From positions 3,282,520 to 3,346,519 of the forward strand of contig NC_054389.1 in assembly GCF_001625195.1 (NCBI RefSeq): a stretch of 64,000 nucleotides of DNA. The letters run 5' to 3'. The translations under genes and the position numbers were made by a program. This document shows, one piece after another, positions 8,002 through 51,872 of the stretch. The number at the start of each line of letters is the position of its first letter. The first letter of the stretch is position 1. The stretch is from Drechmeria coniospora. Taxonomy: Eukaryota > Ascomycota > Sordariomycetes > Hypocreales > Ophiocordycipitaceae. Under the pieces are notes generated by a model that saw only the letters and a list, made by a program, of their open reading frames with translations, did no database searches and was not told where the DNA came from.

Positions 8002-8236
8002 GTATACCCTAAGCCGGGTACCCTAATTAATAATAAGACGGCTAACTTTAAAGCCCAAAAATATAATACTACTAAGGCTATAATATTAAAATAAAATACA
8101 TAGAGTATCTATTTAAGCTACTATTTAAAGTAAAGGCTATTAAAGTTAAAGATAGAAGTTAAGGCAGCTATTAGAGCCGGATCTAGTACCTACCGAAGTC
8201 TAGCTTAAGTCTTAATAATTGTACTAATTTTTATAA

Positions 8237-8642
8237 AGTTATAAGGCTAGGCGTACGGGTAAAACCCGGGTAGACAAGGGCATATAGGTAAAGCCCAAGT
8301 AGATAGGAAGGTAGGGCAGCCTAGGAGTAAGGTACGCTCCGGCTATAAAAGGAATATAAGCCCGAAAACTCAAGAAGGGTTAAGCTTTAGTCTTAAATAC
8401 TACTCAATTTCAAAAAGAAGGCTCATATTATAGTATCGGGCTTTGCCCGATATACAAGAACGGAGGGAACCAAGGGACCCACTAGGAAGCACGCATACAA
8501 CTAGAAGCCCTAGTTACTAAGTAGTTTTCCCTCCTTCAAGTCTTTTAATAACTATTATTAAGAGCCCTAGAGCAGCTGCCTAGTGACTCCTTAACAGCTT
8601 ACTTACTTACCTAACTATTGTTAAACTAATCCGCCTATTACA
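8237..8642 (+). mobile_element. LTR of about 230 bp (family F type), itself split by a 172-bp LTR
   Basis: The outer sequence (8,237-8,425 plus 8,602-8,642) matches the 3' LTR of element F at 47,712-47,934 in opposite orientation. Shared stretches include the area around GGTAGGGCAGCCTAGG and the end AATCCGC. Removing the insertion leaves about 230 bp. I could not find a clean 5-bp duplication. Confidence 0.65.
8426..8596 (+). mobile_element. Solo 172-bp family LTR nested in the F-type LTR
   Basis: It is 171 bp and one of the less mutated copies: GGGCTTTGCCCG and ACGCATACAACTAGAAG are kept, and it ends CTCCTTAACA. Flanks are GCTCA (8,421-8,425) and GCTTA (8,597-8,601), a 5-bp duplication differing by one CA to TA change. 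Confidence 0.85.
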
Positions 8643-9853
8643 AAAGTACTTATTAAGAACTTAAGCTACTTTTTTCTATTTCTAAGGCTTAAGTTAGTAG
8701 ACTTAATATTTTAATTAATTGATTTTTACCTAGGCCTCTATAAGACTAGTATTATATATATTAAGGCCCTAGCTAATCTTCTAAAATAACGGCTTAGTAG
8801 TTTAATTAATTTAGCTAGGTATATATACCTTTATAATAGGTATTTAAATATTATATAATTGTTTAGGCGTTTATAAAGTATTATAGCTATATTTAAGCTA
8901 CTTTTTAAGGGCCTTATTATTTAAAATAGTTATAGACTTATCCTATAAAATAAGGCAGCTTAGTAATAGCTTTCCTATATTAATAGGCTATAGTTTATAT
9001 CCTTTCTAACCTCCTGTAATATTCTATTCTATAAGACCTATTATTTAGGCCTTACTAATTAGTATTATATCTTAGCTACTAACTAAAAATATAATACCTT
9101 TAATTACCTAGCGGTAAGCTACTTTAATTAGTAAAAATATAATATATTAAGAGGCTAAAGGATATATATTATATATATTAGTAAGAAAACAAGGAAAATA
9201 CTATTTTTAAAGCATTTATATATAAAATTATTAGTTATATAACTTTTATATCCATTAATAATAAGAAGCTATTTATTAATTTGTAATACTTTAGTCCTAG
9301 GAATAAAAACCTCTTTTAGTTACTTTAATACAATATTATTATTAGTCTAGCCCTTATTTATTGCTATAAAGCACTATTAGTTATATAGGGCTAATTCCTT
9401 AGGAAACTATTAGTATTTAAGGTCCTTACCCTTAAAGAAAATCAGTAGTATTAGGGCCTAACCTAAAGTAAAACGCATTTTATAATTATAGTCTAATAAT
9501 ATAATCTAAGTTGCTTTCTTAATTATATTTTCTTCTTTAATCTCCCTATAATTAGGCTATTATTACTAAGGCCCTTTAGAATTCCTATTTTATCTATATT
9601 TTATTAATATTAGGGTAAAATAGCCTATAAGGCCGATAGTTTTAGTAATTAGGACGAAGACTTAATTTAAAGAATAAAGGCTCTATTTAAATATATGCAT
9701 TTAATAGACTTACCTTATACTATACTAACTTTTGAGTTCTAGTATAAGAAACCTTTAATTTAATTTTTACCAAAAGGTTAAAGGTCGCCTTTAGCAATAA
9801 GAACACAGTTAGTAAAGACCTTTAATTATTAATATAAGGGTAGTAGCCCTAAT

Positions 9854-10043
9854 TGTAATAATATTATATATTGTACTATTTTCTAGCCTACCCTATACTC
9901 GTTATTATATAATGCGCGGACTACTTATATATATAGCCTCTTCCTCCCTATACTTATTATTTTATTTTTCTTTTCTTCCTCCTTAGTTTGAAAATTCTAT
10001 AATCTTTATATATACTACCTTCTTACTAGTCCGTATTGTAATA
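9854..10043 (+). mobile_element. Solo 191-bp family LTR (gypsy G2 type)
   Basis: A perfect 5-bp duplication CTAAT flanks it (9,849-9,853 and 10,044-10,048). It starts TGTAATAATATTATATATTG and ends TATTGTAATA, and matches the LTRs of the complete G2 element at 14,179 and 20,472. It interrupts the putative TIR element. Confidence 0.9.
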
Positions 10044-10250
10044 CTAATACACCTTAGGTAAGAACCCAATTACGTAAATATATTTCTTAATCCTTAGAAA
10101 GCTCCTATAATATTTATTTTATATTTTTAATTAAAAGGCTACTATATAATTAGTATTAGAGTATTTAGTATATAACTCCATATTAATAAGCAGCTTATAG
10201 CTATAGTAGCCCATTTTAAATAGTATTAAGAGCTATTTGGACTATTTTTT

Positions 10251-10570
10251 TAGTATAGGTAAATAGCCTAGGTATAGGGAATACTAAAAGTATATTTTTA
10301 TAATTAATTATAGTTAAATTATACGAAAAAATGCGGTTATAAAATAGTAAGTTTAATTAGTATAGGTAAATAGCCTAGGTATAAGGGATACTAAAAGTAT
10401 ATTTTTATAATTAATTATAGTTAAATTATACAAAAACAATGCAGTTATAAAATAGTATGTTTAATTAGTATAGGTAAATAGCCTAGGTATAGGGGATACT
10501 AAAAGTATATTTTTATAATTAATTATAGTTAAATTATACGAAAAAATACAGTTATAAAATAGTAAGTTAA
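10251..10570. repeat. Three tandem copies of a 107-108 bp unit
   Basis: The motif TAGTATAGGTAAATAGCC recurs at 10,251, 10,358 and 10,466, each followed by the same AT-rich sequence ending near ATAAAATAGTA. Units differ at a few positions, mostly G/A or C/T. It lies inside the right end of the putative TIR element. Confidence 0.9.
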
Positions 10571-10637
10571 TTTGTATAAAGGAGCTAAGTAGAGTACTTA
10601 TCTTAGGGTATACCCGTCTTAGGGGGGGCTGACTTAC

Positions 10638-11006
10638 CCTTGTACCTAGCTATATACTTTACATAAGTATATGTAAGAAAATATATTAATAAGCTAGTAA
10701 CTCTAAAATATTATACTTTATATTAATAACAAATAACTGCAAGCAGCTTCTTATTTATAACTAATATATAATACAATTCTTATTTGTACTTATACTTAAC
10801 TTAATTAATTTATAAATACAATAATAGTATTGCTTATATATTATATAGCTATAGTATATTATACGTATTAACTCCAGAAACTCTTTAATATACGTAGTAA
10901 GTTTATAATTAAACATAATTATATTAGTATTCTTGCATTTAGTATTACAGATAATATTAATACATTTTACTACCACCCTATGATTTACATATTCACTATA
11001 CAATGC
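10638..11006. other. AT-rich 3' flank of EXO70
   Basis: This 370-bp stretch is AT-rich but, unlike the repeats around it, still holds CA and TG dinucleotides, so it is probably host 3' flank and terminator region and not transposon. An 80-codon minus-strand reading at 10,761-11,003 has low-complexity composition (Tyr, Ile and Asn) and is probably not a gene. Confidence 0.5.
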
Positions 11007-12985
11007 TCAAGAAGCCAGGCTAAGAAACACAGCGGAAATAGCAGACTTGTCATACTTCACATATTTTCCTTTGCCTTTGTCGATTTCATGGTAACGGTCC
11101 CAGAAACGGTCGTAAAGAGGCTGCAGCTTTTGGCGGATGTCTTCTCCAAACATAGAGCGCACCTCTCTCTCCATATTATACGATCGGTGTTTAGAGACCA
11201 TGTCATCGAATGCGTTGTTGAATTGTGAGAACTTCTCTTTGATTTTGTCCTTGTCTTTGCTGCTCAATCCCTTCACAACAGAAGCAGAGTCGGCCGGTCC
11301 TGATGTCGGACGCTGAGTGCGGTTTGTATGAATGGTATCAAACAAATACACGGAAAGGTCCTTGCATATGTCCGTGTATGATGCGGTAGCCTTCTTTCTC
11401 CATTGCTCGAGGAACTCAAGGCGTAACTCTAGAAGTGAGCGAAGATCCGTATCTCGTATCGCGCGTTCAATGATGACAACGCAGTTGGCAACTAATACCC
11501 CAACGACTGATCTGCCCCTCAGCATTGTTCGCGCTTTTTGCTCTAAAGTTGAGAGAAAAGTATCGATGGTGTCGAGGCAATAATGCGCGAAAATAGCCTT
11601 TCCATCTGCGCCAACATCAAATGACGCAAGGTTTGGAATGGCATCGATGGAGCGGCCAGCTGGCGATGCGGTTGTTCTCCATCCACCATCACCGATAGAT
11701 ATCATAATGCCTGAGATCGGTCGCAAGAACTCAGCCATGGCTTGCAGACGCTGCATGATTCTCGAAACTAGAGGAATAGTTGCACCATCAGAAGGAAGGG
11801 CCTGCAGACCACCAACTTCTCGTCTAGTTTCATCGAGTAACTCGGACAGAGATAACTTAGCTGTCTCGCGAACGGGCCGCAGAGCCGCCGCGAACGACGT
11901 CTTGAGATTACCTGTTTTCGTGTCCAGATTTCCAGCCAATACTGTGAGTATCTCAGTGACTTCATACGCTAGATAGCAATCAGTCGAAAGATGGGCCTTT
12001 ATGTGCGAGTTTAGTTCCCGGATGGTCCGTGCAAGTTCGTTCAACGCAGGCTGGCATGTCGCTTGAAGCACATTACCCCTATCATCCGGGGGGAATATGC
12101 TACAAATGCTGTCATATTCGGACAGGAACATGCCTTCCATCGCCTGGGCATATGTGCTTATCCCATTCGTACCAGCTCGATAAACGGCGCCAGGATTCTT
12201 TTTCTTAGCCGTGCTGACACTGGCGGCAGCTAAATTCACCAAAGAACCGGACAAATAAGGCCCTCGAACATCGGCATATACTTTAGCAGGGGACGTCTCA
12301 TAGCCCTGCTGTGCGGAGGCTAGATACGAACAGATGACGCTGAGGCGAGACGTCTTGTCCCGTGACAAGGGAGGAAACGCCATTTCTTTGGTTATGTAAT
12401 GAAGAGGCTCGATGGAGGGAGGTGTCTCGCCACGCAGCAACTTGTCGAAGTAGAATTCGAGCTGTGTATTTCCCGACTTGATGAGGTGGACTAATTCGGT
12501 TAGTGATTGTTGGTTTGCACGCAAATTTGAGGCCTGCATGTCGGCAAAAGCTTTGCCAAGGCGTTTTATCGAAGCCAGATAATTAGATAGACCAGCCTTG
12601 TCAGGGCCAGCGCGAATGATCAGCTCCTCGTCGTCCTTGCTGTCGGCGGGGTGTCGAAGTCGTCCGATGGCAGAAAGCACGGCATCAACGTCTGCATGGC
12701 GGCTGAGCAACTAGCGAGGGAACTGTGCCACAGCAACTTGGATCCGATGGGCAGAAACTTACTATTTTCCAGTAATTGTAGCCTCCTTGTCTCGCCACTT
12801 AGGGGACCAGCAACCTCGTTTACGCTATGACCCGACGCCTCGAGGCGGCCTAGGCAAGTTTGGATTTTCCTGGTGAGCTGAGTCGTCTTATCAAGGCGCG
12901 AGTTGAGAACATCCACTTCAGCTCTCGCCTCCTCGTCCAGCGTCTGACGCGGTAAAATGCTGAGTGAGCTAACCGACATTGTCAT
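11007..12985 (-). CDS. EXO70: Exocyst complex component Exo70 (two exons)
   Basis: Exo70 is a subunit of the octameric exocyst, which tethers secretory vesicles to the plasma membrane at growth sites and binds PI(4,5)P2 and Rho GTPases. Exon 1 is 12,985-12,763 and exon 2 is 12,691-11,007. Together they give 1,908 nt, 635 residues plus TGA, close to the usual size (yeast Exo70 is 623). Exon 1 starts in-frame ATG ACA ATG and encodes an N-terminal coiled coil (DEEARAEVDVLNSRL). The splice joins LLEN to NVDAVLSAIGRL, a conserved Exo70 stretch. Further family signatures are AGLSNYLASIKRL, ADMQASNLRANQQ, IEPLHYITK, the IFAHYCLDTIDTFLSTLEQ block, THTNRTQRP-like TIHTNRTQRPTSG, and a basic C-terminus KGKGKYVKYDKSAISAV that matches the lipid-binding end. 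No stop, frameshift or RIP damage is seen. It lies alone among transposons, so it is either the resident copy under selection or a transferred duplicate. Confidence 0.96.
12692..12762 (-). other. EXO70: Intron of EXO70 (71 nt)
   Basis: The donor GTAAGT begins at 12,762 and the acceptor ...GCAG ends at 12,692, phase 1. A second possible acceptor (CTCAG) lies 10 nt upstream but would break the frame. The chosen pair restores an uninterrupted frame and a conserved Exo70 junction (LLEN-NVDAVLSAI). The size is typical of filamentous ascomycete introns. Confidence 0.88.
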
Positions 12986-13013
12986 CTGCAACGTTCGCAA
13001 ACAGAACTGTCAT
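12969..13013 (-). promoter_or_regulatory. Short upstream ORF overlapping the EXO70 start
   Basis: An ATG at 13,013 opens a 14-codon reading that ends in TAG at 12,969, past both candidate EXO70 start codons (12,985 and 12,979) and in another frame. If the mRNA 5' end lies upstream of 13,013, this uORF would compete with the main start. Transcription start is unknown, so the role is inference. Confidence 0.4.
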
Positions 13014-13178
13014 GAGTGTTTATAATGTTCGTGATAGGGATAACGGAAACCCTTAATAGGGCGGCGAAATACATGTACAATACCTACAAATGGCAATGGA
13101 GTTAGAAGGTGGGTGGGTAATGAATGCACTCATCGACAGCAAACCACCCGTTGCTAAGCGCTTGGTGCGGCCTACGGA
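12986..13178 (-). promoter_or_regulatory. Short 5' flank / promoter region of EXO70
   Basis: Only about 190 bp of non-repeat sequence separates the EXO70 start from the transposon-like end at 13,179. Its composition is balanced, with CA and TG present. No clear TATA or CCAAT box stands out. Any upstream element beyond this would now lie in transposon sequence. Confidence 0.5.
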
Positions 13179-13250
13179 GTAAGTCAGCCCCCCCCAAGAC
13201 GGGCACCCTAATTAACAATAAGGCGGCTAACTTCGAAGCCCAAAAACACA
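13179..13250 (+). repeat. Transposon-end sequence (inverted partner of 10,613-10,637)
   Basis: The first 25 bases (GTAAGTCAGCCC through AAGACGGG) match the reverse complement of 10,613-10,637 at 24 of 25 positions. The following 47 bases match 8,024-8,070 (CCCTAATTAAYAATAAG and GGCTAACTT). This is the best-preserved copy of that end. The rest of the element is missing and copia sequence follows. Confidence 0.65.
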
Positions 13251-13513
13251 CTAGGTATAGACTTAGTATTTAGGTAGCTAATTTTAGCTAGGCTATTAGT
13301 TACTTTTTACTAAATATACTAAAACTTTAGTAATATATACTTTGTTTAGTTATACTAATTAGAATTATTAGTATTAAAAATAGATTTATTATTATTATTA
13401 TATAGTAAAATAGGTTTTTAGAGACCTTTACTTATTTTAGTAAATAGACTATTTAGCTATTTAAGTTCCTAAATAGCTTTTAATAGGTTATTTAATTCTG
13501 CCTTTATAGTAGA

Positions 13514-13899
13514 TATAATAATATTATATATTGTCTTGTTATAATATTAGGCTTTACCTAATAGAGCTATGTCCTAGGATAGAGTTACGGACTACTGTAT
13601 GTAACTTATACCCTATAACTAAGTAGGTATTAGAGTATAAGTACTCTAATACTTAGTACTTTAAGTTGGAGTTCTATAGATTTCTTAATAACTATTTCCA
13701 ACTACTAAATACTAGTAGTACTAATAACTCTATAATATGTATTCGTTTTCTAGCCTACCCTATACTTTCTATTGTATAATATGCAAACTACCTATATATA
13801 TAGCCCCTTTCTTTTTGTACTTTTTTTTTTTCTTCTCCTTAGTTTAAAAATTCTATAGTCTTTATATATACTGCCTTCCTACTAGTTAGTATTGTAATA
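13514..13899 (+). mobile_element. Solo G2-type LTR, split by a second LTR
   Basis: It is flanked by a perfect 5-bp duplication GTAGA (13,509-13,513 and 13,900-13,904). Without the nested insertion it is about 180 bp and matches the 191-bp G2 LTR from TATAATAATATT to TATTGTAATA. Confidence 0.85.
13537..13737 (+). mobile_element. Nested 201-bp LTR-like insertion
   Basis: It starts TGTTATAATATTAGGC and ends CTCTATAATA, sharing both ends with the 172-bp LTR but with a different middle (GGATAGAGTTACGGACTACT). Flanks TGTCT and TGTAT differ by one base, which suggests a 5-bp duplication. It is probably a sister LTR family. Confidence 0.6.
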
Positions 13900-14178
13900 G
13901 TAGAAAGAGTAATAGTATTAGCCCTTTTTGAATTTTAGTAAATTAGTCTACTTACTAAAACAGAAAAAATTTATAGGTAGACTTAAAGGAGTTTAAGTTA
14001 CCTATAAAATTACTATTAGAAAATTTAAATAAAGTAGGTACTAAAGACTAAGACTAATAGTAAATAGCTATATTTATAATTACTTTTAAATATAAAAAAC
14101 TTTTACTATAAATTTATTCCTAATTTTATAAGCCTTATAGAACTACTTATAGCCCTTATAGGAAGGGGTATACTATTG

Positions 14179-14369
14179 TATAACGATATTGTATATTGTA
14201 TTCTTCTTTTAGCCTACCCTATACTCTTTATTATATAATGCGCGGACTACCTATATATATAGCCCCTTCCTCTTTATACTTACTATTTTTTTTCTTTTTT
14301 CTTTTTCCTTAGTTCGAAAATTCTATAGTTTTTATATATACTACCTTCCTATTAGTTAGCGTTATAATA
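14179..14369 (+). repeat. 5' LTR of G2 (about 191 bp)
   Basis: It starts TATAACGATATTG (TG to TA at the second base) and ends GTTATAATA. It matches the 3' LTR at 20,472-20,662 in length and order. Confidence 0.85.
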
Positions 14370-15415
14370 TTATTTTCGAACTCTATTGGCCTACCCCTAA
14401 GATAATTATTTAGCTAAACCCTAAGTCTAATAGAATGTTAGGCCCTATTAATTATACTACTTACTCGGCTGTTACCTAAAGCCTTAACTTAATACTACCC
14501 TTAGAATAACTAAGTAGTTCTACCTTAAGCTCCAACCTAGCTCTACTTAAAATTATTACCTTACTCTAAGTATACTTATAATAGCTCAAAGGAATAAGTA
14601 AAGCTTCCCCTACCTCTACCCTTAAACTAATACCTTTTGCTACTATAGCTCCTACCGCCCGCCTTATACTATACCTAACCTTATTTAATAGTAACTTAGT
14701 CCTTTTTTCTTCTTAATTACTAAAAATTAAGGCTAAAATTAAATATAAAGGTACCTCTATTAGTAATAATAAAGCCTAATTCTATTATATTTTCGGCCGA
14801 CTAGAACTAAAACCTAAAAAGATTCTAGCCGCTTAGTTAAAGTATAAGCAGAAAATAAGTAAATTTAACTACTAAAAGATTATTTAGTAATTAAATATAA
14901 TTTATAGTAACTTAAACTAAGCTAAGAAAGCCCTTAAGAAACTATTATAGCTCTACTAAACCGTTATATTTATAAAGTTCATTCCTATTTTCGAAAGTAT
15001 ATTACTTAAAGTTAGTAGCCCTAACTAGCCCGAAGCCGTTAAGATTAATTACCTTAAAACTGCCCTTTTTAATAACCTTTGCTAGGTACTACTTCTTAAT
15101 TTTAATCTCTTATATAATAACTTTTATTCCTTTACTCGCTAAGTTAGTACTATTACTAACCGTTTTAAGTCCCTAATATATTACTTATCCTACTACCCTA
15201 CTAACTATTATACCGAAGGGGTAAAGATAGCTACTACTACTTAGTAAGCCGACCTTACCGAGCCCGCCTGTATTTAATAAGCTAACCTTACCGAGAGAAA
15301 TAAATACCTTTACGGGTAATAAGTTAATCTTACTAAAGGTAATAAACTCCTTTATAGTAAATAAGCCTAATATATTTTAGCTATAGAACTTAGCTGCTAA
15401 AGGTAAAAGGGGGTT

Positions 15416-15457
15416 TACTTTTATTACGTAAGAAAGGGCTACTATACGTAAATCTAC
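15416..15457 (+). pseudogene. G2 zinc-knuckle relic, all four ligands Tyr
   Basis: The frame reads YFYYVRKGYYT, stop, IY. The four Tyr sit exactly at the spacing C-x2-C-x4-H-x4-C of a retroelement zinc knuckle. TGC to TAC and CAC to TAC are both RIP-type changes, so the ancestor was probably CCHC. That reconstruction is inference from spacing and context. Confidence 0.6.
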
Positions 15458-18400
15458 TTACTTTTACTACCTATCTTACTATAAAGATAAAATATAACCC
15501 CTAAAATCTAAGCGCTATAGGATATCCCTATAGGTAGCATTAAAGGATATAGTAAAAAGAATACTATTTTAGATTAGGGAAATAAGTAGGCTTTAAAGAA
15601 AGTTATTCTTTAAGCCTATTAAACGAAATAAGCTTAATCTTTCTTCCTTTTTTAATTCTTATAATAGTTAATTCGATTTATTATACTAAAAAGACCCTTA
15701 TAAATATAGGCTTAACTATTTATATATTTATTAATAGTACTTTTATAGAGAAAGCCTAATTAATATATATTCCTATTTCCCCCTAAGACCTATAAGGCTT
15801 TTAGAACTATCCTATTACCTAAATATTTAAAATAACCTATACTAAGATTAATATAAAGGGCTACTTTTAAGATATCTTCCTTTATATTATCCTATACTAG
15901 TACTATAATTTTATCCTTAGCCTTAAACGGATATAATGCTAAGATATTATTATCTTACTTACTAAATAATAGCTTTATATTAAGTCTTTTAATACTTAGG
16001 TTTAAAACCTTACCTATTACTATTATTAAAAACCCTTATACCCTATATAGTAAATTTAATAAATTTATAGTAACTCTTTTTCGGCTTATACTTAATACTA
16101 AAGAAAAGACTCTTTAATTTAAATCTTTACTACCTCCCTAGCCGATATTAAAAAGGCCCTTTAGCCTAAAATTACTAGTAACCCTTATACTATACTTTTA
16201 GTATACTACTATAACTTTTTTTCCCTTTTTAGCTATTAGTAAGCCGATAAGCTTTTACCCCTTAAAGGCTACCTAAACTATAGTATCCCCTTAGAGAAAG
16301 ATAAGGCTAGCCTTAAAAAATAACTACCTTAGGGCCCCCTTTATACTATATTATAAGAAGAACTACTTATTCTCCGAAAAATATTATATAAACTACTAAA
16401 TAAAAGATTTATTTATATTAGTAGTTCCCTAGCTATTACCTTAGTTCTTTTTACTAAGAAACCTAAAGGTAGCTTTTGCTTTTATATTAACTATAAAGGA
16501 CTTAATACTATTATAATTAAGGACTACTTCCCCCTTCCTCTTATTTAAAAGACCCTTTACTAAGTCTTTTAAGCCTAATAGCTTATAAAACTTAATATTA
16601 TTTTAGCGTTTTACTACCTATAGGTTAAAGAAGGTAATAAGTAGAAAACTACTTTTTATATTTAATTTAGCCTCTTTAAGTAGCTTATTACCCTATTTAA
16701 ACTAACCTTTACCCTTACTACTTTTTAGTAGTATATTAACTATATACTTTATAAATACCTTAATATCTTTTACTCTATATATATAAATAATATACTTATT
16801 TACTTCTTAGGGTCCCTTTAGGACTATTATTATAAGGTCCGGTAGATTCTTAGTAAACTCTAAGAAGCTAGCCTTTAAGTTAATATTAATAAATATACTT
16901 TTAAAACTATAAAGGTTAAATACCTTAGTATAATTCTTATAGCTAGCTAAGGTATTAAGATAGATTCCAATAAGGTTAAGGCAATCTATAACTAAGTACT
17001 ACCTACTATAGTTAAGGGGGTCTATAGCTTTTTAGGCTTTATAAACTTTTACTAGTAATTTATTAATAGCTATAGCCGCTTAGTAAAACCTCTTACTACC
17101 CTTACTAAAAAATTAATATTTATTTTTTTTCTTTTCCCCTTAGCTAAAGAAGTATTTAATATACTTAAGAACCTTTTTACCTTTTACCCTATTCTTACTG
17201 CCTTTAACTATACCTATAAAACGGTACTTAAAGTTAATACCTTTAGATATTATATTAATAGGGTACTTTTATAATATAATAATAATAAGGTACTATAACT
17301 AATAGTATACTTTTCTACCTATATATCTTTAGCTAAAGCTAACTATACTATTTATAATAAGGAGCTCCTTACTATTATTAAATACCTTTCCGAATAGAAT
17401 ACCGAACTTTATAGCCTAAATAGCTAATTTAAAATCCTTACTAACTACTTAAGCCTTAAGGCCTTCCGCTAGACCTACTACCTTAACGAATACTAATTCT
17501 ATTAGGCTAATAAACTCTCCTAATATAACTTTACTATTTACTTTTGCCTTAGGAGGCTAAATAGTAAATTTAATATACTCTCTTAATATAAGTAGGATAT
17601 ACCCTACTCCCCTAAAGACCTATAGTATTAAGGTTATAATACTATACTCCTTTTGGATTATCTCTTTACTATAACCTATACCCTTAAACCTACTTTAATC
17701 CCCTTACTGTTTACCGATATAATACTAACCGACCTTTAGAATTTAGCCCTTACTATTAATACTAATTACTAAAAGGCCCAAGAGGCTATAGCCTAAGGCT
17801 AATTAAAATAGCCCCCGACCCTATACCTTAGAATCTAACTCTCTAAATACAATCTTAATCTAAAAGGCCGCCTTTACTACTATAAATATATATAGATCCC
17901 TTATTCTAAACCGCTTTATACTTACCTTATATAAGATATATATAATACCTTCCTTTCGGGCTACTTAGGTAAGGGTACTACTACTACCTTAGTTTTAAGA
18001 TAGCTCTTTTAGCTAAATTATAGTACTTTTACCTACCGCTTTATTTAGAATTACTAATTATATAGTAGTAAGCTTATCTAAAGGGAATAATACTAAGGCC
18101 TCCTTAAGCTACTCCCTATCCCTAACTATATTTAGTCTAAAATCTCTATAGATTTTATTATAGATCTTCCCTTATCCTATAGGTTTAGTACCCTCCTTAT
18201 TATTACTAACTAACTTTCTAAAGGTATTCTCCTTATTTTAATAAATTACTACTATACTAAAGATATTATATAAGTCTTCCTTACTTACTATATCCCCTAC
18301 TATATACTACTAGTAGCTATTATTTCTAATTATAGCCCTTAATTTATTAACGCCCTTTAAAAATACCTCTATAACCTCCTTTAGATAACTTATAGGCTCT

Positions 18401-19585
18401 TTATAGTATACTACCTAAAAATAAATAGAGTAACTAAACGAGCTAATTAATAAGTTAAGGACTACCTTTATACCTTTTGCTCTATTACCTAAAATAATTA
18501 GGCTACCTTACTCCCTAGGGCTGCCCTAGCTATTAATAATTATTTAACCTTAGCTTTTAGGATAAGCTTATTCTTTCTCTCCTATAAGTATAACCTTAAC
18601 CTTACCTAACTTATCGACTAACTCCTTACTCCCTCTACTTACTAATCCCCTATAGCCTAAGCCGAAACTATTACCTATAAGCTTTACTAAAGTATCGAAT
18701 AGGCCTAAGTAGCTATAGCTACTATATAAAATACCTAATAATACTATACTAATCGGTCCTACCTATTAGTAGATAACTTTTAAGTTAGTAACTATATATA
18801 GCTTTCCCTTTGTAATATTAAAACGACTTAGCCGTATAAGAAACTTAATTAAAAGAATAGCCTTTACTAAGTTATTACCCTAGTAGGTTCTTATATATAC
18901 CGACTTAATACCCCTCTTAGTATATACCCTATATTCTATACCTACCTACTTTATTAAGCAATATCGGACCCCCTCCTATCCTAATAGTTAGTCGACTTCT
19001 AACCGCCTCCTATTACTAGTAAGAATAGTACTAATAAATACGCTATTAACTATATTAGTAACGTTAAATACTACTAAGGAGCCCTATACTGCGCCTTAGT
19101 CTACTAAACGGGCTATACTATTCCAACGTAGGAGCTAATATCGGCTATTAAAGATATAGTCGCTTAGGATAATTTCTTATGCAATAACCTAGTACTACTT
19201 AAGTTATAGCCTATTTCTCTATAGTAGTAAAACTTAGCTCTAAGTATAAATATAGCCTAAGCCCTTACTCCTACTACCGCCCTAGCTAGGGTTTTAGTTC
19301 CCTAGAGTAAACAAATCCGCCCTAAGAGGAGGGCTCTTTACACCGCTTTAACTATTATAGTATCTATAACGCTTAGTCTCCCCCTAATACCCTACAGTAT
19401 AACCCGTAGGACCTATAGGTAGGCAATAAGGAACCCCTACTACCTACCTACCTTCCCTATTATATTGTAATACTAAAGCGTTTGATTTTACAAAGGCTAG
19501 CGCCTAAAGTAATCCCCTTGTAAGTAAAACTAAAGCCTATAAGCCTATTTAAAAAGCTATATTACAGGCGCCTTAAGATATAGTA

Positions 19586-20195
19586 TATCTACCCCTAGGT
19601 ACCCTCTATTACCCTTAGTAGTCTCTATTACCCCCGGTACCCTCTATTACCCTAGTACCCTATTACCCCTAGTACCTTTTAACGCCCTCTAGTACCTTTA
19701 GGTACCCCTAGTGCCCTCTATTACCCCTAGTGCCTTTTATTACCCTTAGTAGTCTTTATTGCCCCTAGTACCCTTTATTACCCTAGTAGTCCCTATTACC
19801 CTTAGTGCCTTCTAACGCCCTTTAGTACCTTCGGGTACCCTTAGTGCCCTCTATTACCCCTAGTGCCTTTTATTACCCCTAGTAGTCTCTATTGCCCCTA
19901 GTGCCCTCTATTACCCTAGTAGTCTCTATTACCCCTAGTACCTTCTAATACCCTTTAGTACCTTCTAGTACCCCCGGGTACCCTTTATTACCCCTAGTAG
20001 TCTCTAGGGCCTTCTAGCGCCCTTTAGTACCTTTAGGTACCCCTAGTGCCCTCTGTTACCCTTAGTGCCTTCTATTACCCCTAGTAGTCTCTATTGCCCC
20101 TAGTACCCTTTATTACCCTAGTAGTCTCTAGCGCCTTCTAGCGCCCTCTAATGCCCTCTAGCGCCCTCCGGTACTTTCTAGCGCCGCTAGTTAAT
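19586..20195. repeat. Degenerate minisatellite in the 3' region of G2
   Basis: About 600 bp are built from repeated short phrases such as CTATTACCCCTAGTAGTCT, GCCCTCTAGTACC and TTAGGTACCCCTAGT, in units of roughly 20 bp that alternate irregularly. It lies between the integrase end and the 3' LTR. No reading frame is kept across it. Confidence 0.8.
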
Positions 20196-20471
20196 CGAAC
20201 CAACCCCCTTATATACCTACTAACTCTATTAGTAGCCCGGCTATACTAGATATAGCTTATTAGCTACTTTTAATTTTCCGTAAAATTTATTTATATAGCA
20301 AAATAAAAAAATTAACTTACGGCCACTAAACGCCCTCCCTCAAACTACCTTACACCTACCCTATACTCTAATTACTAACCTACCTACCCTATACCCTAAG
20401 TTCAACCTACCCTATACCTACCCTATACCCCCTATTTCTCCAACCCGCCTATACCCAAAGGAGGGGGGTAT

Positions 20472-20662
20472 TATAACAATATTGTATATTGTACTCTTCT
20501 TCTAGCCTACCCTATACTCTTTATTACGTAATACGCAGACTACCTATATATATAGCCCCTTCCTTTCCGCACTTACTGTTTTCTTTCTCTTTTCTTCTTC
20601 CTTAGTTCGAAAATTCTATAGTCTTTGCATATACTGCCTTCCTGCTAGTCAGCGTCGTAACA
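20472..20662 (+). repeat. 3' LTR of G2 (191 bp)
   Basis: It is less mutated than the 5' copy: TTTGCATATACTGCC and CAGCGTCGTAACA are kept at the end. It is followed by ATTGT and then by gypsy G1 sequence that continues the frame left at 14,178. Confidence 0.88.
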
Positions 20663-21459
20663 ATTGTACTAAGGACCTAAAGAAAATATAGCCTTTTAAT
20701 CCTTTAAGTATACCTTTTTATTATACTTAATCCTAATATAATAGGACCTAAATAGGAAGACTTTCGTTAAAACTAATTACTTAGGTAAGGTACTAAGTAG
20801 ATAACTTTTATAAATTAATAGTAAGGGGGTTTTATAACTAATAGCCTACTACTTAGCTAAACTTATACTAATAGAAAGGAATTATATAATCTATAATAAG
20901 GAACTCCTAGTAGTTATTAGCTATCTTAAGGTATAGTTAGTAGACCTATAAGGTATTATAGAACTATTTACTATTTTAATAGACTATAAGAACCTTAAAT
21001 ACTTTACTAAACTATAGGAGATATTAAAATAATAGGTATAGTAGGCAGAAGTCCTTATAAACTTTAATTACTTACTATAGTATAGATTGGGCTTATAAGT
21101 ATAACGGCTAAATATACTCTTGTATTAAGAATAGGATAAGGAAAACGTATTATACCTAGAATAAATACTTTAGCTAGTATTAATCTCTATACTATAGAAG
21201 GTACCTAAAGGCTAACCCGTATAAGAAGGTCCTAATACCTAAGATATAGCTATTATAAATATAGGGATAAACTAGGCCTAGGCCGGCTATAAAGTACTAA
21301 GTACCTAAGATATAATAGCTATAGATATAGGGGTAGACTAGGCCTATTTAGAGATAGAAAGGGGATAAGGAACTATTAATATATTCTAACTACTCCTAGT
21401 AGTATAGGGATAGATAGGGAGGGAGATACTATTTCTATAGGATATACTAACTAACTAAC

Positions 21460-22156: not shown

Positions 22157-25100
22157 CTAACTACTCTTCCTAAAACCCTACCTATAGGAATTATAGGATT
22201 AGGTATTACAAAATAATATAATATATAAAGCTTAATAATAAGTAGTTATAATAGGTATATAAAAATTCCTAGTAAAAGTAAAGATAAAAGAATAAATAAC
22301 TAATTATACTATTAGTACCTATAGTACAATATACTATAGGGGATACCTATAGTTACTAGCCTAAGAACTACTAATAATATAAATAATATAATAGGTATAT
22401 AAATTACCTATATTAGGCTACCTTAGTTAAAATGGAATATTCTAGGCACTTTAGTAGGACTTCTATTAGGATAGTATATTATAGAATGTAATATAATATA
22501 TTTAGAATTACTACTATTACTAGAGCTATAAGAGCTATTTATAGAAATAGGAACTCCTATAACTAATCCCCTTACTAGATTATTATTAAAAGTAGATATT
22601 AATTAACTTTATAACTAACTTACTAGTATAGAACAATAAGGACCCCTAATTCTTAATAGTTATTATAGACTGCCTTTCTAAATTTATTTAACTAAAGGCA
22701 ATAACTATAATAAGTACAAAGGCTTATATAAAATGGATTAAGACCTATTAGTAGTAATTTAAGGGTTTTCCTACTTAAATTATACCGGATTAGGGATTAG
22801 ACTAGCTTAGTAAGTTCTAAATATCCCTATACTCCCTTATTAGTATAGAATAACTCCTATTAACTTTATACTACCCTTAAATAGATAGGGGTACTAAGAG
22901 GGTAAATTAAGAAATTTAAGCTACCCTATAGATCCTAATCTTATTTAAGTAACTTAACTAGTTAGCCTACCTAGCTACCTACTAACTTACCCTAAATAAT
23001 AGGGAGTCTTTAGTTATAGGAGTTAGCCTAAATAAGCTATTATTAAGCTATAAAATTAATATAATACCTAGGGTAAAGGATAACTAAGTAAGTATAATAA
23101 TATTAAAAGGGAGGGCTATTACTTTCTTATAATACCTAAGGGAAGGAATAGAAATTATATAAGTAGCTATTGCCTTTATATAATAATACTTATATAAGTC
23201 GGTAGTAGCTTTAGGTTACCTAGTAGAAAAGTTCTAGGTAGGTAATAAGGTCTAGCTTAGCCTTAGATATATTAAAACCAATAGGCTATATAGGAAGCTA
23301 AACTAAATAGCTTTTAAGTTTATAGTACTAATAGTACTAATACTACTTATAGTAATATTAAATATTCCTTAGGGCTTATATCCTACCTTTTATATAGACT
23401 TTATTAAAAGGGCAGTAAATAACCTATTACTTACTTAGGTAGTATAGGATTTAGAGCTAGGCCTACTATTAGTCTAAGATAAGAATAGTACCTTATAAGA
23501 GGAATATTAAGTTAAATGCATTCTTATAATAAGGGGGGTCTAAGGCTAAAGGGAATAATACAATACCCTTATAAAATAGCTAGGTTATAAATAACTAACC
23601 TAGGAACTAATAGAGGCCCTAATATAAATAGAAGCCCTAGAGGAATTTATATAGTAATAGGGAGATCCCTATATAAACAGTAGAGCGTAGGTAAGCTGTA
23701 AAATAAAATATAAAATTTTAAATATACTAAACAAAAACTAGCCCTAAAGCGGCCCTAATAAGGACCTAACCTAATACTACTATAGATATATACTAACTAT
23801 ACTACTTAGACTTATTAGTTTCTATATTCTTTTTGCTTTTATTCTTTTTAGTATCCTCCTTAGGGAGGGTCTTAAAACTATTTATTATAGTACTTAGGCA
23901 GGGGTAGGATATAACTAAGGGGGGTAAGGGTAAGAGTATAAAATAAAGGTACTAGGTAATATAGGTAATATAAGGGGCGGAGGTATAAGGCAATACAATA
24001 AAGATATACTATTTATATAAGATAGGTATAATTTATTACTATTATAGGTAATATAGGGAGTAAAGGGAGCAGAATAATATAATAAGGAGGAACTATTTAC
24101 GTAAGACTTATATAACCTATAAATATTACAGTATATTTTGGCTAAAGTAGCTATTAACTTAGTACTAATACCCTCCTATACCTACTAACGGTAGGTAAGG
24201 CTATATATATTACTCTAGATACCTATTAGGGCCTAAGCTATACCCTAGATAAATATACTAAGCTATATACTTAGTATAGTACTAGAATAGCTACCTACTT
24301 AAGTTAAGGTTAAGGTATTAGCAGTAAGGATAAGGGTATAGTTTAGGTTATTATTATTATTAGCAGTAGTAGGGGGAGAGATAATACTTAGTATAGGGGT
24401 AAGGGTATAGGCAGGATATATAGGGGTAGGCTTTATTTCGGCTAGAGCTAGGGTGCAGGTCTAAATTTGGCCTAGGGCTAGAAATTTAAGCAAAAAGACA
24501 ATACAAGCGCTTAGTACGGTTCCAACCTTAGAGTAGGCCTTAACCAAAATATAGATATTACACTAAGTATAAGTATAAAGGTTATATAGGGCGTAATATA
24601 GCTAAGGGCATACAGTAAATAAATACAGTACCTAAATGCATTTAGTATATATATATATATATATACAGTAACTAGTACTATAGTCCGGTATATAGTTATT
24701 ATAGCTACTAGTAATAAGGTAATTAATATAGGGAAGGTATATTCTATATACCTCCTTTAGAGGTATAAACTCCTTATTGAAAGAGTTACCCTCTACTAAG
24801 TATTTACCTAGAGCGCAATAGTAGTCCGACTTATTGGTATAGTAGCTATAATAAGGGCCCGAACTATATTTAGGGGGGGGGGGGGAGTATTTATAGCAGT
24901 AAATATAATAGTAGTAGTAGTAGTAACGAAAAGGTAAATAAGTCCTCTATAAGGGAGGAGTAATAGTAGTAAGAGTAGGATTAATAGTTCCTATTATTAC
25001 TAGCTTATTAGCTAATAGCCCAAAGAATATACAGAACGGCCCTAATAAGGAAGCAGTAACCTACCTTATAGGAGAGGAATAATAATAATAAAGGAGTAAG

Positions 25101-25523
25101 TATAGTAGGAGGTAGTAAAAGAGTTAATAATAAATTATATAGTAAGAAGCTAGAAAAATAAGTAGGTATAATAATTAAAGGAAAGAGGAATAATAAAGTA
25201 TAATAGGAAGGAAATAGAAAGAGTAATATAAAGGGAGTAGTAAGAGGGAAAAGTAAGGTAATACTAAACGCCTTAGGTACCTAGGGAATACTTAGGGAAT
25301 ACCTAAGGAGGGGACGGAGCAGGATAGAGTTAGTTACCCTAAGTAACTAGTAAACTCTAAACAAAGGAAAATACAAGGAGGAGGCTATATATACTAAGCA
25401 CCTAATAAATACCCGAAAAAAGTTTTTAGGGGGAGCTATAGATTAGGAAGACTAGCCTAAGGAAGGGTAGTTTAGCTATAGCTATAGCTAGACTTTACTT
25501 TAAACGGGTAGAGTAAGACGGTA

Positions 25524-25694
25524 TATTATAGTATTAGGCTTAGCCTAATATAGGAGAACAAAGGGAACTAAGGGACCTACTAGAAGGAATGCATATAACT
25601 AGAAGCCCTAGTTATTAAGTAGTTTTCCCTCCTTTAAGTCTTTTAATAAACATTATTAAGAGTCCTAGAGCAGTTACCTAGTAACTCTATAATA
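25524..25694 (+). repeat. 3' LTR of gypsy G1 copy 2 (171 bp)
   Basis: It follows GGGTAGAGTAAGACGGTA and runs from TATTATAGTATTAGGC to CTCTATAATA. It abuts truncated copia D sequence. Confidence 0.8.
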
Positions 25695-28600
25695 ACTTAA
25701 AGGAATCTAAGTTACCTATAAAGTTACTGTCTAAAAATCCAAATAGGCTAGGTACTAGGGACTTAGACTAATAGTAAACAGCTAGGTCTATAGTCCCTTT
25801 CAGATATTAAAGAAGGTTCTTACTGGTTAATAGTTATAGACTAATAGCCTAATATATATACCGAGATAGCTATTAAATTACAAAGGCTATATCTAGTCGG
25901 GTTAATAGCATTAGGTATATTAGAGTCCTAACTATCTATTAGTATACCAATTAGTCAGTTGCGGGTAAGGGAGGAAGAGGTGTTATTATAGCTTATTTAA
26001 GTATACCTAGCTGTAACGGTATTGCTACTACCTTAGCCCCCTCTAGCCTAAGTTATAATAGTACTTCTTCGATATACCCCTTTTAACTAAGGGTAATACC
26101 CTTAGTCGTTTGGCTAATCTATACGCCTAAGAAGAATACAACCTACCTATAATCTTTAATTAGGTAAACCTTATATAGTTTTTGTTTTAACTTATTAATA
26201 TACATAAGGTTCGGCCCAATAAGCAGACAGTCGTTAATATAGCTAACTATATAGGTACTAGTAGTACTATTATAGTAGACAGCCGGGTCGGATATACGAG
26301 GACTATATCCGAATTAATATAGCAGTTTGGAAAGTATATCTTACTACTCTCTAGGTCCTTATCTAAGACTATAGAGTACTTTCTTTAAAAGAATACCTTT
26401 TTTAACTATTAGTTTATAGCCTAGCTTAGCTAGTTACTTGCCTAAATTATTAGTCTTGTTAAGACTAATAAATACTTCTAGTCCATTAGGTATTTTAAGG
26501 AAATTAACTTTAGGTAGCTTACTGTTAAGAAAAGTACTAATAAAGTCAATGTATTTAATATACTAATTGTTCTAGGTAGTAAGAGCTAGTAGTATCCTCT
26601 AGGTAGGTAGAATACTTATAGCTATAAAGGTCTCTAGATAGTTAAGACCTTTAATCTATATAAATTCTTTAGCTACTAAACGTACCTTAAATTTAATAGG
26701 ATTGTTTTACTAGTCCTTTTTAACTCGTAGAATAAGACGGCTTTTAAGAAGCTATCTACTAGTTAGTATTTCTTAAAGGGGAATAAAGTAAAATACCCCT
26801 ACCTAAATAAGTTACTGAAATTTAGAGAATATAGTACTTATCTACTAGTCTTTGTTGTTTAATTTAAGTACCTACTTCCAGTTAGTAGCCTTACTACTAA
26901 CTAATAGTTACTTTGCCTTAGCTTGGTAGTATAAGTCCTTAATCCAATATACTAAGTTAAAATCTACTAAATTAGAATTATCTTTTAATTTAGATTTATC
27001 TAGAAGAGAGGTATTTAGTAGATCCTCTGTTGGTTAGGCTAGGACCCCCTTTGTAGTACTAGTCTTAGTAGGACTAGTCGGTCCGTTGGCCTCTTGCAGC
27101 CTACTAGTCCTAGTAGGACTAGTTAGTCCGTTGGCCAAATGTAACCTACTAGTCCTAATAGGACTAGTTAGTCCGTTGGCTAGTTGCAACCTACTAGTCC
27201 TAGTAGGACTAGTTGGTCTATTGGCCAGATGCAACCTACTAGTCCTAGTAGGACTAGTAGCCCCCTTTGTCTCCCTAGGTATTAGGGGACTAAAGGTACT
27301 TTAAGAGATAGTAGTAGTTAAATCTACTATCTTAATTTCCCCCTCTAAATCTAGTCCTTTAATACTAGGACTTAGTAGTCGGGGGAGCCCTTGGGAGATA
27401 GGGCCAATACCTTCTAGGATTTTTAGGAAGGTAGTTTTTGTAACCGACCTCCTAAAAGGTATATATATAAGGTATATTTTGGAACCTAGTATAGCTAGTA
27501 GCCTTACTGGTTCTATGCAAGATGCTAGTTTGGTACTTTGAATCCGTTTCTGATAAGGAATTAGGACTTTGCAATATGTACTAATAGCCTTATAGGCCGT
27601 AAGATTTAGTGGTATTTTTAGTCCTTGTAATTCCTGCTTAGTAATTGGAAGGGACTTAAATCCTAGTTCGAAATTGCAGTATAGTTAATAAGATTAACTA
27701 TAGTAGGAAGAACAACAGACTAAAGGAAAAGTAAAAGGCCTACCTAGATTATTATTGTATATAGTCGGTCTAGGATAACTTATATAAACCGTTCGGTAAG
27801 TCCGTTCTGTTCGAGCGTATATAGGTAAGATATATTAAATAAAATTCCTTTCTTACTTAACTAAGTCTAGAGCAATATATTAATTTCTATACCCTTGTTA
27901 AAAAATAACTGTTTTGGGTAATAGTTATACTGTTGTTTAAGGCTTTTGAAGAGATTCCAAATAGCCTAAAGAATAGTTGATCCCTCCTTATTAGGTAAGA
28001 TTAATACCTAACGGAAGTAGGATTTTCGGTTAATTAGTATAAGACCTATAGACTTATGATTATAGGATATTAGTCGAATCCTAAATGTATTACCTGCAAT
28101 TAAATTAAGAACGTAGTCTAAATTGTTAATAGGATTTCTAAACTATTGTTTAGTGGATTTAGCCTAAATATAAGTAAGGCATTAAAAATTAGTAACCTAA
28201 ATAGATAAGAAGTTAGGTAGCCTAGTAGTAATACTACTAGTCTTTTTTAAGAGTAGGAGACTAATATATTCTAGTCGGATGTACTAAATGCCGGCTTGTT
28301 GCAATAGTCTTTAGTAAGACTAGTTGTTTAATTCCGAATAAGTAGTTGGAAGGGCTTATTCCTTAGGACTAGTAGTTAGGACTACTAGTTAATCTATTGC
28401 CTCTATAGGAATTGGGTCTTCTATAGGGTCTTTGAATAAGGTAACCTTAGTAAGGTCCCTTAGTATAGCCGAACTAATAGTTAGGCTAGGTACCGATCTG
28501 GGTACCGACCAAGGCACTAGGGAAGGTGCCGACCGAGGTACCGGGGAAGGTACCGACTGAGGCACTATTAAAGGTACCGACCGAGGCACTAGGAAAGGTA

Positions 28601-28829
28601 CCGACTAAGGTACTAGGGAAGGTACCGACCGAAGTACTAGGGAAGGTACCAATCAATCCTCTATTTCGGAAGCCCAAGGGGGGGGTTGGGAGGGAATTTT
28701 AACTATAATTCTATAGCTATTGTAGTAGCTAGAGTAGGAAGTATCTGATTTTATTAAATAGGGCGTTTGTTAACCTTACTATTATAGGAAAAAGCTATAT
28801 TTCTAGAAATTAAGGAGTCCGTATAATTA

Positions 28830-29138
28830 TTAATTTAAGTTATATAGATATTCCTTAATAAGGGTTCCTCTAGATGCATAATAGCAAATTCTACTAATAA
28901 TACTAACTTCTAGTTTCGGAATATATAGTGCTTCTTGTAAAACAAGAGTACTATAGACAGATGGATTAGTATAGATTAGTACAGTAAATTCAGTATAGCT
29001 AATACCTTTGGGATAAATTGGACCGCCTCCGATTGTAATTGGTTTTGCTTGGGATTTTGCAATAGGTCGGAAAGTTATAAACTTAAGCCGGTTATTTACT
29101 AAATAATAAGTTAAGCTAGCATTGTAAAGTAGGCCCAT
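28830..29138 (-). pseudogene. Copia D protease-region fragment, 102 open codons
   Basis: The open stretch runs MGLLYNASLTYYLVNNRLKF and onward through AKSQAKPITIGG to SIISRICYYASRGTLIKE. It aligns with the copy A protease (53,261-53,522), where the catalytic box is LLYDTSST. Here Asp is Asn, so a product would be inactive. It keeps the Gln codon (AKSQAK) that is a TAA stop in copy A. Confidence 0.75.
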
Positions 29139-29340
29139 TTAGTACGTATTGCTATTATTAATACAATATATTATACTAATATTCCCTAAATTAGGTAATA
29201 GTACTAATTCTTATTCGGAATTAGAGTCGGTATCTAATTCCTAATAGGAATTAGGTAACCCTATATAGCTAGTGGATAGGCTATAGCTACTAGTTAGGAA
29301 ACTAATAGTACTCTTATTTGGTATATGGTTTTTGGTTTAA

Positions 29341-29475
29341 TTATATCGTTTGGGTCGGTTGGGTCGATTGGGTAAATTAGGTTAATTGGGTTAGTTGGGT
29401 TGGTTGGGTGATTTGGGTCGATTGGATCGGTTGGGTCGGTTGGGTCGGTTGGGTCGGTTGGGTTAACTAGGTTTA
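29341..29475 (-). repeat. Tandem GGTTGGGTC-like array in copia D gag
   Basis: Repeats of about 9-10 bp encode, on the minus strand, a run rich in Pro, Asn and Arg/Gln (PNRPNQ type). The same array is in copy A at 53,695-53,815. Confidence 0.75.
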
Positions 29476-51791: not shown

Positions 51792-51872
51792 AAGGTATGT
51801 TTTTGAACCTAGCGTAGCTAGTAGCCTTGCTGGTTCTGTTCGGGATGCCAGTTTGGCACTTTGAATCCGTTT

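What the first reader, a model, noticed from the sequence alone, without database searches (positions are those of the whole stretch)
10613..13203. Intact EXO70 gene marooned in a RIP-destroyed transposon block, bounded by matching transposon ends
The gene has no RIP damage, a clean 71-nt intron and 635 codons. On both sides lie more than 8 kb of degraded repeats. The two borders carry the same 25-bp sequence in inverted order (24 of 25 match), each opening GTAAGTCAGCCC toward the gene. Either the resident exocyst gene has been engulfed and is kept by selection, or a duplicate was moved there by a TIR element or composite. RIP would normally hit a recent duplicate, so its intactness is informative.
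Basis: partly seen in the sequence, partly recalled or inferred. Interest (0 to 1): 0.75.

Follow-up and report, generated by a model that had tools for sequence, protein, structure and literature searches.

The report
Lone EXO70 gene inside fungal centromere
The only copy found of a conserved secretion gene (EXO70) sits intact deep inside a centromere-type block of mutated transposons in what appears to be a nematode-killing fungus; the matching sequences at its two edges are ends of separate transposons beside the gene, so it was more likely swallowed by the growing block than carried in by a transposon.

Summary
EXO70 (633 codons, 71-nt intron, PF20669+PF03081) is intact and is the only EXO70 found in the genome. 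The 25-bp borders differ at 1 base (no match in 100 shuffles). They are the tips of a 1.87-kb DDE_1 (pogo/Fot1-like) transposon with many copies. In full-length copies L004 and L005 the element body lies on the far side of that tip, so both window elements run AWAY from EXO70: two neighbours, not a capture.

EXO70 is about 369 kb from its left edge and 89 kb from the last repeat hit on the right. HRQ1, merged with EXO70 in one Ophiocordyceps gene model, lies 213 kb away, favouring a resident gene engulfed locally. Against this, three other inferred neighbours are unlinked or not found, and order is rearranged. Expression and CenH3 are untested.

The parts
12763..12979 (-). EXO70 coding exon 1 (ATG at 12979; alternative in-frame ATG at 12985)
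   Evidence: Translation and splice search; DEEARAEVDVLNSRL stretch shared with the relatives read
12692..12762 (-). 71-nt intron, GTAAGT...CAG
11007..12691 (-). EXO70 coding exon 2, including the stop codon
   Evidence: Exo70_C/Exo70_N; only EXO70 match found in the genome
12980..13178 (-). 199-bp 5' flank (promoter side) left to the gene; not RIP-like (GC 0.47, TA/AT 0.93)
   Evidence: no second copy among the sequences held
10638..11003 (-). 366-bp 3' flank, single-copy among the sequences held but AT-rich and RIP-like (GC 0.20)
10602..10637 (+). Terminal inverted repeat (right end) of the left-hand DDE_1 element; the 25-bp border 10613-10637 is inside it
8006..10637 (+). RIP-damaged, nearly complete copy of the 1.87-kb DDE_1 element (pieces 8006-8223 and 8643-9852 plus the end), with extra sequence inserted; its outermost left ~29 bp were not recognised
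   Evidence: 303 of 358 differences from copy L004 are C:G to T:A changes
10250..10578 (.). Tandem repeat, 3.1 copies of a ~108-bp unit, inside the left element's span
   Evidence: TRF
13179..13252 (+). 74-bp left-end stub of a second copy of the same element, hardly mutated, one of two subterminal repeat units missing
   Evidence: compared by eye with L004/L005
13252..13526 (+). Start of an abundant RIP-damaged repeat that cuts off the stub; copies cluster on C1, C2 and C3

Best explanation
This is the fungus's single, ordinary EXO70 gene, stranded as a 2.5-kb island inside the regional centromere-type repeat block of chromosome I. Shown: it is intact, the only copy found, and conserved; it lies within a block of at least about 0.46 Mb of RIP-damaged repeats shared with clusters on two other chromosomes; its two borders are ends of two separate copies of a 1.87-kb DDE_1 (pogo/Fot1-like) transposon whose bodies extend away from the gene. 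Inferred: the gene was resident at the edge of the block; transposons landed 199 bp before its start codon and 369 bp after its stop, further elements nested around them, and RIP mutated the repeated stretches. The gene escaped because RIP acts on repeats (EXO70 has one copy) and because disabling hits that leaked in were removed by selection; the unprotected 3' flank was not spared. Local rearrangement also separated and reoriented it relative to HRQ1. It presumably still makes the exocyst subunit, so it must be transcribed from within heterochromatin-like surroundings; this was not tested.
For: Single copy: protein search 1 match, Pfam PF03081 1 match even at E<=10. Intact frame with 25 codons left that one RIP-type change (CAA/CAG or TGG) would turn into stops. 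Element identity: DDE_1 132.4 bits in an open frame of L004; paired ends 1.87 kb apart at C2:471134-473004, C2:4292724-4294595 and C2:5225042-5226911 and at C1:3065485; orientation of the window ends. RIP spectrum of the left element against L004: 303 of 358 differences C:G to T:A, 162 of them in CpA/TpG context. Block: repeat hits at C1 2.93-3.38, C2 about 1.5-2.1 and C3 about 7.8-8.3 Mb, 4-kb GC bins falling from 0.46-0.59 to mostly 0.2-0.4 at about 2.924 Mb; published D. coniospora chromosomes of 12.5, 10.2 and 9.8 Mb carry regional centromeres marked by repeats, few genes and low GC (PMC4792172, passages), against C1=12,542,233 and C2=10,204,147 here. Neighbourhood: HRQ1 at C1:3508062-3511348, the gene merged with EXO70 in Ophiocordyceps camponoti-rufipedis P0177. 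Evolution: EXO70 end branch 0.22, within the range of the Ophiocordycipitaceae in the tree (0.11-0.50; family membership of those genera recalled), so no sign of decay or foreign origin.
Against: Only 1 of 4 neighbours inferred from relatives is linked: MSH5 (4 Trichoderma models) was not found, the aminotransferase (39 of 89 models, mostly Xylariales) has only a 47% match on C2, and GTP cyclohydrolase (1 Scytalidium model) is on C3. The HRQ1 link rests on one gene model: among the 120 listed of 393 long HRQ1 relatives, EXO70 is the partner in 1 and RanBP1 in 73, so EXO70-HRQ1 adjacency is not the common ascomycete order. By my arithmetic a gene falls within 213 kb by chance about 1.3% of the time, about 5% for four tries. 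Order and strand do not match: in P0177 EXO70 is upstream of HRQ1 on the same strand, here it lies downstream of it; HRQ1 faces the RanBP1-like gene tail to tail here, while the two merged models I read put RanBP1 upstream on the same strand (P0187, P0204). So a move by rearrangement is not excluded. No CenH3 or H3K9me3 data, no expression data. C1 between 3.08 and 3.28 Mb, and everything right of the window, was seen only through repeat hits from capped lists (40 of 99 and 40 of 76 candidates scored), so the right edge is a lower bound.
Confidence: 0.6

Rival explanations
1. EXO70 was moved into the block in this lineage by a chromosome rearrangement (inversion or translocation with a breakpoint in centromeric repeats), without any transposon carrying it.
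For: Order and strand relative to HRQ1 differ from the Ophiocordyceps model; HRQ1 is inverted against the RanBP1-like gene; EXO70 is HRQ1's partner in only 1 of 120 listed models; 3 of 4 inferred neighbours are not linked. D. coniospora has only three chromosomes, with at least one fusion inferred by its authors (PMC4792172, passages), and strains show chromosome plasticity (PMC7500977, title and passages).
Against: EXO70 is still within 213 kb of HRQ1; no breakpoint or old site was identified.
Confidence: 0.3
2. A duplicate or the gene itself was carried in by a TIR element or by a composite of two elements.
For: Matching ends of one transposon family on both sides; a full-length copy of the element lies about 5.6 kb from the C2 aminotransferase, whose Xylariales relative adjoins EXO70.
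Against: The ends adjoining the gene are outer ends of elements that extend away from it; the far end of the right-hand element was not found in the window; no second EXO70; the C2 aminotransferase is only 47% identical, so it may be a paralogue, and another damaged copy of the element also lies nearby (C2:4271990-4273587).
Confidence: 0.05
3. Assembly artefact: EXO70 misplaced into a repeat block.
For: Repeat-rich regions including centromeres account for most breaks in an earlier D. coniospora assembly (PMC7500977, passages); 28 contigs in this assembly.
Against: Gene, flanks and both transposon ends form one continuous sequence with no N in 9800-14000; the published assembly was anchored by optical mapping (PMC4792172, passages); EXO70 was found nowhere else.
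Confidence: 0.04

Closest known systems
Genes inside CenH3-enriched regional centromeres of Zymoseptoria tritici (PMC4589918, passages)
   Same: Protein-coding genes lying within centromere regions of a filamentous ascomycete; 39 genes reported inside or overlapping, 26 of them transcribed.
   Different: Those centromeres are described as small and overall poor in repeats; of five genes with consistent expression two had similarity to known genes. Here one conserved exocyst gene is isolated in a block of at least 0.46 Mb of RIP-damaged repeats, and CenH3 has not been mapped.
Gene-free RIP-type centromeres of Neurospora crassa and Fusarium graminearum (PMC4511438, passages; N. crassa as described there and in PMC4589918)
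   Same: AT-rich centromere blocks holding transposon remains.
   Different: The F. graminearum authors report no genes in their four centromeres; D. coniospora, in the same order (recalled), has an intact conserved gene inside the block and a second island (SRP72 and a Sec7-PH gene) near the left edge.
Gene islands in AT-rich isochores such as those of Leptosphaeria maculans (recalled; only citations and a listing were seen)
   Same: Intact genes stranded among RIP-damaged transposons.
   Different: There the islands are known mainly for effector genes (recalled); here it is a housekeeping secretion gene in a centromere-type block.
pogo/Fot1-like (DDE_1) Tc1/mariner-superfamily transposons (the class name is recalled; the calls show DDE_1 and a weak Tc5-type HTH)
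   Same: DDE_1 transposase, inverted ends, ends abutting TA, 1.87 kb.
   Different: Nothing unusual about the element; next to EXO70 the window holds one damaged copy and one 74-bp stub.

Membership tests
EXO70 exocyst subunit | Exo70 N- and C-terminal domains over the full length | tested here: met
   PF20669 65.1 bits and PF03081 320.5 bits in the spliced 633-aa protein; 78% identity over 98% to Purpureocillium EXO70
EXO70 exocyst subunit | Expressed product that works in the exocyst | not testable with these tools
   Frame intact; no RNA or protein data
pogo/Fot1-like DDE_1 transposon | DDE_1 transposase between inverted terminal repeats | tested here: met
   DDE_1 132.4 bits in L004; the HTH_Tnp_Tc5 match is below its cut-off, 19.6 of 22.2; inverted ends 1.87 kb apart in three copies; in the window only damaged remains
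pogo/Fot1-like DDE_1 transposon | TA target-site duplication | tested here: inconclusive
   The ends read abut TA, but no empty site was available to prove duplication
Transposon-captured gene (TIR element or composite) | Gene lies inside the element, with the outer tips facing away from it | tested here: not met
   The outermost bases (TAAGTC) abut the gene on both sides and the element bodies extend away from it
Transposon-captured gene (TIR element or composite) | A donor or second copy elsewhere (expected for a duplicate) | tested here: not met
   1 EXO70 match in 32.8 Mb by protein and by Pfam
Regional centromere of D. coniospora | Large AT-rich, repeat-rich, gene-poor block on each chromosome | tested here: met
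   Repeat clusters on C1, C2 and C3 and composition step at about 2.924 Mb; published description. C1 was read in part only
Regional centromere of D. coniospora | CenH3 nucleosomes over the block | not testable with these tools
   No ChIP data held; EXO70 could lie in core or pericentromere
RIP-damaged sequence | C:G to T:A changes, mainly CpA context, in repeats | tested here: met
   Left element 303 of 358 differences, 162 in CpA/TpG; EXO70 CDS shows no such signature by index

The most novel reading that the evidence does not exclude
Growth of the centromere consumed EXO70's surroundings and left a natural test of selection: its Trichoderma neighbour MSH5, needed in meiosis (recalled), was not found in this genome, whereas EXO70, needed in growing hyphae (recalled), survives deep in the block and is transcribed inside CenH3- or H3K9me3-bearing chromatin. 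Neither the chromatin nor the cause of MSH5's absence was tested; MSH5 may have been lost for other reasons, such as a rare sexual cycle.
Probability: 0.15. Interest if true: 0.7.

Novelty: new member of a known kind. Interest (0 to 1): 0.45.

Why it matters
Centromere blocks of related fungi are reported as gene-free or nearly so (PMC4511438 and PMC7482064, passages). A conserved single-copy gene working inside one would show that a housekeeping gene can survive RIP leakage and stay expressed there, and it gives a ready marker for mapping where CenH3 and H3K9me3 stop and start. It also shows how matching transposon ends beside a gene can mimic gene capture: the direction of the ends decides.

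Tried and rejected
Transposon capture: rejected on end orientation and absence of a second copy. The 12-base GTAAGTCAGCCC alone is weak: 5 matches against 3 for the reversed control pattern, and one of the five (L003) does not carry the 25-base sequence; the longer sequence is what carries the case, and it was sought genome-wide only through the 12-mer and the 1513-bp element query. Horizontal origin of EXO70: no sign in the tree of 21 chosen proteins, though its placement beside Ophiocordyceps australis is weakly supported (71/55). Decay of the gene: rejected; 5 residues unique at otherwise invariant columns against 0-18 in the other 20 proteins. RIP spectrum: the copy at C1:3065485 differs from L004 by 139 C:G to T:A, 83 reverse transitions and 91 transversions of 313, so it is not mainly RIP-damaged relative to L004, unlike the window copy. 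GC3 of EXO70 (0.52) is below 6 of 8 left-flank frames examined (0.59-0.71; 8 of the 17 left-flank frames) and resembles the other island (0.50-0.55), but two of the 8 are as low or lower (0.40, 0.51); the C2 aminotransferase frame has 0.90; the frames were not all checked for being real genes. I draw no conclusion.

Neighbour search: merged gene models were used as stand-ins for synteny. Of 89 long EXO70 relatives 39 carry the aminotransferase domain, 4 MutS domains (Trichoderma, MSH5), 1 HRQ1-type helicase domains and 1 GTP cyclohydrolase; 44 carry no partner domain. In the 120 listed of 393 long HRQ1 relatives RanBP1 is the partner in 73 and EXO70 in 1. Only HRQ1 proved linked. Paper searches: Drechmeria coniospora + exocyst 0 papers; Drechmeria + MSH5 0 papers; exo70 + centromere + fungus 12 papers, 10 listed, none on this by title or abstract start; 'exo70' and 'exocyst' occur 0 times in the main texts of PMC4792172 and PMC7500977. 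T. reesei genome paper: the passages shown gave nothing on this point.
Full report
What was checked. The window lies at C1:3282520-3346519 of an assembly of 32,831,003 bases in 28 contigs. C1 is 12,542,233 and C2 10,204,147 bases, and hits on C3 reach 9.67 Mb. Drechmeria coniospora ARSEF 6962 is published with three chromosomes of 12.5, 10.2 and 9.8 Mb (PMC4792172, passages). I take the window to be from this species; the genome handle carries no name, so this is an inference from sizes and from the best EXO70 relatives, whose source names in the 120 listed of 738 are filamentous ascomycetes, the top ones Hypocreales (classification of the names recalled).

The gene. On the minus strand a 633-codon frame is obtained with one 71-nt GT-AG intron (12692-12762), or 635 codons from an in-frame ATG two codons upstream. 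The protein has both Exo70 domains and is 78% identical to Purpureocillium lilacinum EXO70 over 98%. In a tree of 21 chosen EXO70 proteins its end branch is 0.22, twice the median but inside the range of its family (0.11 to 0.50), with 5 residues unique at otherwise invariant columns against 0-18 in the other 20. One EXO70 was found in the genome: one match by protein and one by Pfam PF03081 at E<=10.

The borders. The 25-bp match is real: one mismatch, opposite strands, no other match within 3 mismatches in the window, and none in 100 shuffles. At least two further places in the genome, L004 and L005, carry the same 25 bases. There the sequence is the tip of a transposon; in L004 an open frame running to the end of the fetched stretch encodes a DDE_1 transposase. 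Three copies show both ends, about 1.87 kb apart. The element query gives 48 matches from 37 scored candidates, on chromosome arms as well as in the centromere clusters. In L004 and L005 the element begins at TAAGTCAGCC and runs on through CCCCAAGACGGG. In the window the TAAGTC tip touches the gene on both sides, so each element runs away from EXO70. To the left lies a nearly whole copy, RIP-damaged (303 of 358 differences from L004 are C:G to T:A, 162 of them CpA/TpG) and interrupted by extra sequence including a 108-bp tandem repeat. To the right only 74 bp remain, hardly mutated, before another repeat starts at 13252. These are two neighbouring insertions, 369 bp after the stop codon and 199 bp before the start codon, not one element around the gene.

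The surroundings. Two repeats next to the gene were searched in the whole assembly. Their copies pile up on C1 at 2.93-3.38 Mb, on C2 at about 1.5-2.1 Mb and on C3 at about 7.8-8.3 Mb, with a few at C1:0.38, C3:0.33, 2.3-2.5 and 9.4 Mb and on small contigs; the lists are capped. In the 200 kb that I could read on the left, GC drops and RIP indices rise sharply at about 2.924 Mb, with a few higher-GC bins inside. The species' authors describe regional centromeres with high repeat content, low GC and reduced gene density, and active RIP. EXO70 (C1:3293526-3295498) is therefore about 369 kb inside the left edge and about 89 kb from the last repeat hit seen on the right (3384252). The block between 3.08 and 3.28 Mb, and beyond the window on the right, is known only from repeat hits. 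Inside the block near its left edge there is a second readable island, C1:2941603-2947856, with SRP72 and Sec7-PH genes, so EXO70 is not the only survivor but is the deeper of the two seen.

Resident or moved. No fungal relatives' genomes are held, so I used gene models that merge neighbouring genes. Of 89 EXO70 relatives chosen for length, 39 are merged with an aminotransferase domain (mostly Xylariales), 4 with MSH5 (Trichoderma), 1 with HRQ1 helicase (Ophiocordyceps camponoti-rufipedis) and 1 with GTP cyclohydrolase (Scytalidium). In this genome HRQ1 is at C1:3508062-3511348, 213 kb from EXO70 and beyond the last repeat hit seen, beside a RanBP1-like gene. RanBP1 is the partner of HRQ1 in 73 of the 120 listed models and EXO70 in 1, so the EXO70-HRQ1 pairing may be a feature of this family rather than the old order. 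MSH5 was not found, only 31-33% matches at four MutS loci. The aminotransferase has a 47% best match on C2, and GTP cyclohydrolase is on C3. So one of four is linked, the one from the closest relative. Chance would give at least one such link about 5% of the time by my arithmetic. Strand and order differ from the Ophiocordyceps model, so some rearrangement must have happened. I judge a gene caught at the edge of a growing block most likely, and a move by rearrangement the main rival.

Why it is intact. RIP acts on repeated DNA (established for this pathway), and EXO70 is single-copy; that alone may suffice. The 3' flank, without a second copy in the sequences held, has the composition of RIP-damaged DNA (GC 0.20), which suggests that damage leaked up to the stop codon and that selection kept the coding part clean; this is inference. 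Twenty-five codons remain that one RIP-type change would turn into a stop.

What is known. Zymoseptoria tritici has genes in CenH3 regions, some of them expressed (PMC4589918, passages). Fusarium graminearum centromeres were reported without genes (PMC4511438, passages) and the AT-rich regions that overlap the centromeres of Verticillium dahliae as nearly devoid of them (PMC7482064, passages). RIP prominence in centromeric regions and D. coniospora's class of moderate RIP are in PMC7882544 (passages). I found no paper on EXO70 in this fungus (searches; zero mentions in two genome papers). The case is a new member of a known kind: a gene island in a centromere-type block, unusual for being one conserved exocyst gene in hundreds of kilobases of RIP-damaged DNA. 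Whether the gene is expressed, and whether CenH3 covers it, is the open and easily tested question.

Noticed in passing
G000 C1:2941603-2947856 (L033): A second gene island inside the repeat block near its left edge: an SRP72-like gene (plus strand) and a Sec7-PH gene (minus strand), both with normal composition.
   Followed up: partly
whole genome G000: A Trichoderma MSH5 query finds only 31-33% matches at four MutS loci, so MSH5 seems to be missing; MSH4 was not tested separately. This bears on whether the fungus has normal meiotic crossing-over.
   Followed up: partly
G000 C1:3505878-3511348: RanBP1/YRB2-like and HRQ1 genes face each other tail to tail, whereas gene models of other ascomycetes merge the two (73 of 120 listed; order read in two): a local inversion is likely.
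   Followed up: partly
G000 C3:2323206-2331372 and C3:2450318: A few copies of the centromere-type repeats far from the main C3 cluster; may be the vestigial centromere-like region that the authors report on chromosome III (position not seen).
   Followed up: no
window 50154-54734: Retrotransposon-like remains with long open frames (545, 217 and 183 aa; Copia-like by my reading, not searched) and a weaker RIP signature than most of the window (TA/AT 1.3-1.5), so probably a younger insertion.
   Followed up: no
window 14001-21000 and 23001-31000: Opposite GC skew in neighbouring damaged repeats: -0.2 to -0.4 in the first, mostly +0.1 to +0.3 in the second with one bin at -0.05.
   Followed up: no
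L044, C1:3051634-3052488: A patch of about 70% GC, open on both strands, inside the AT-rich block; a TRF run over it printed nothing.
   Followed up: partly
G000 C2:4285870-4294595: The best relative of the aminotransferase that adjoins EXO70 in Xylariales lies about 5.6 kb from a full-length copy of the same transposon that borders EXO70; likely coincidence, since the match is only 47% and copies are many.
   Followed up: partly
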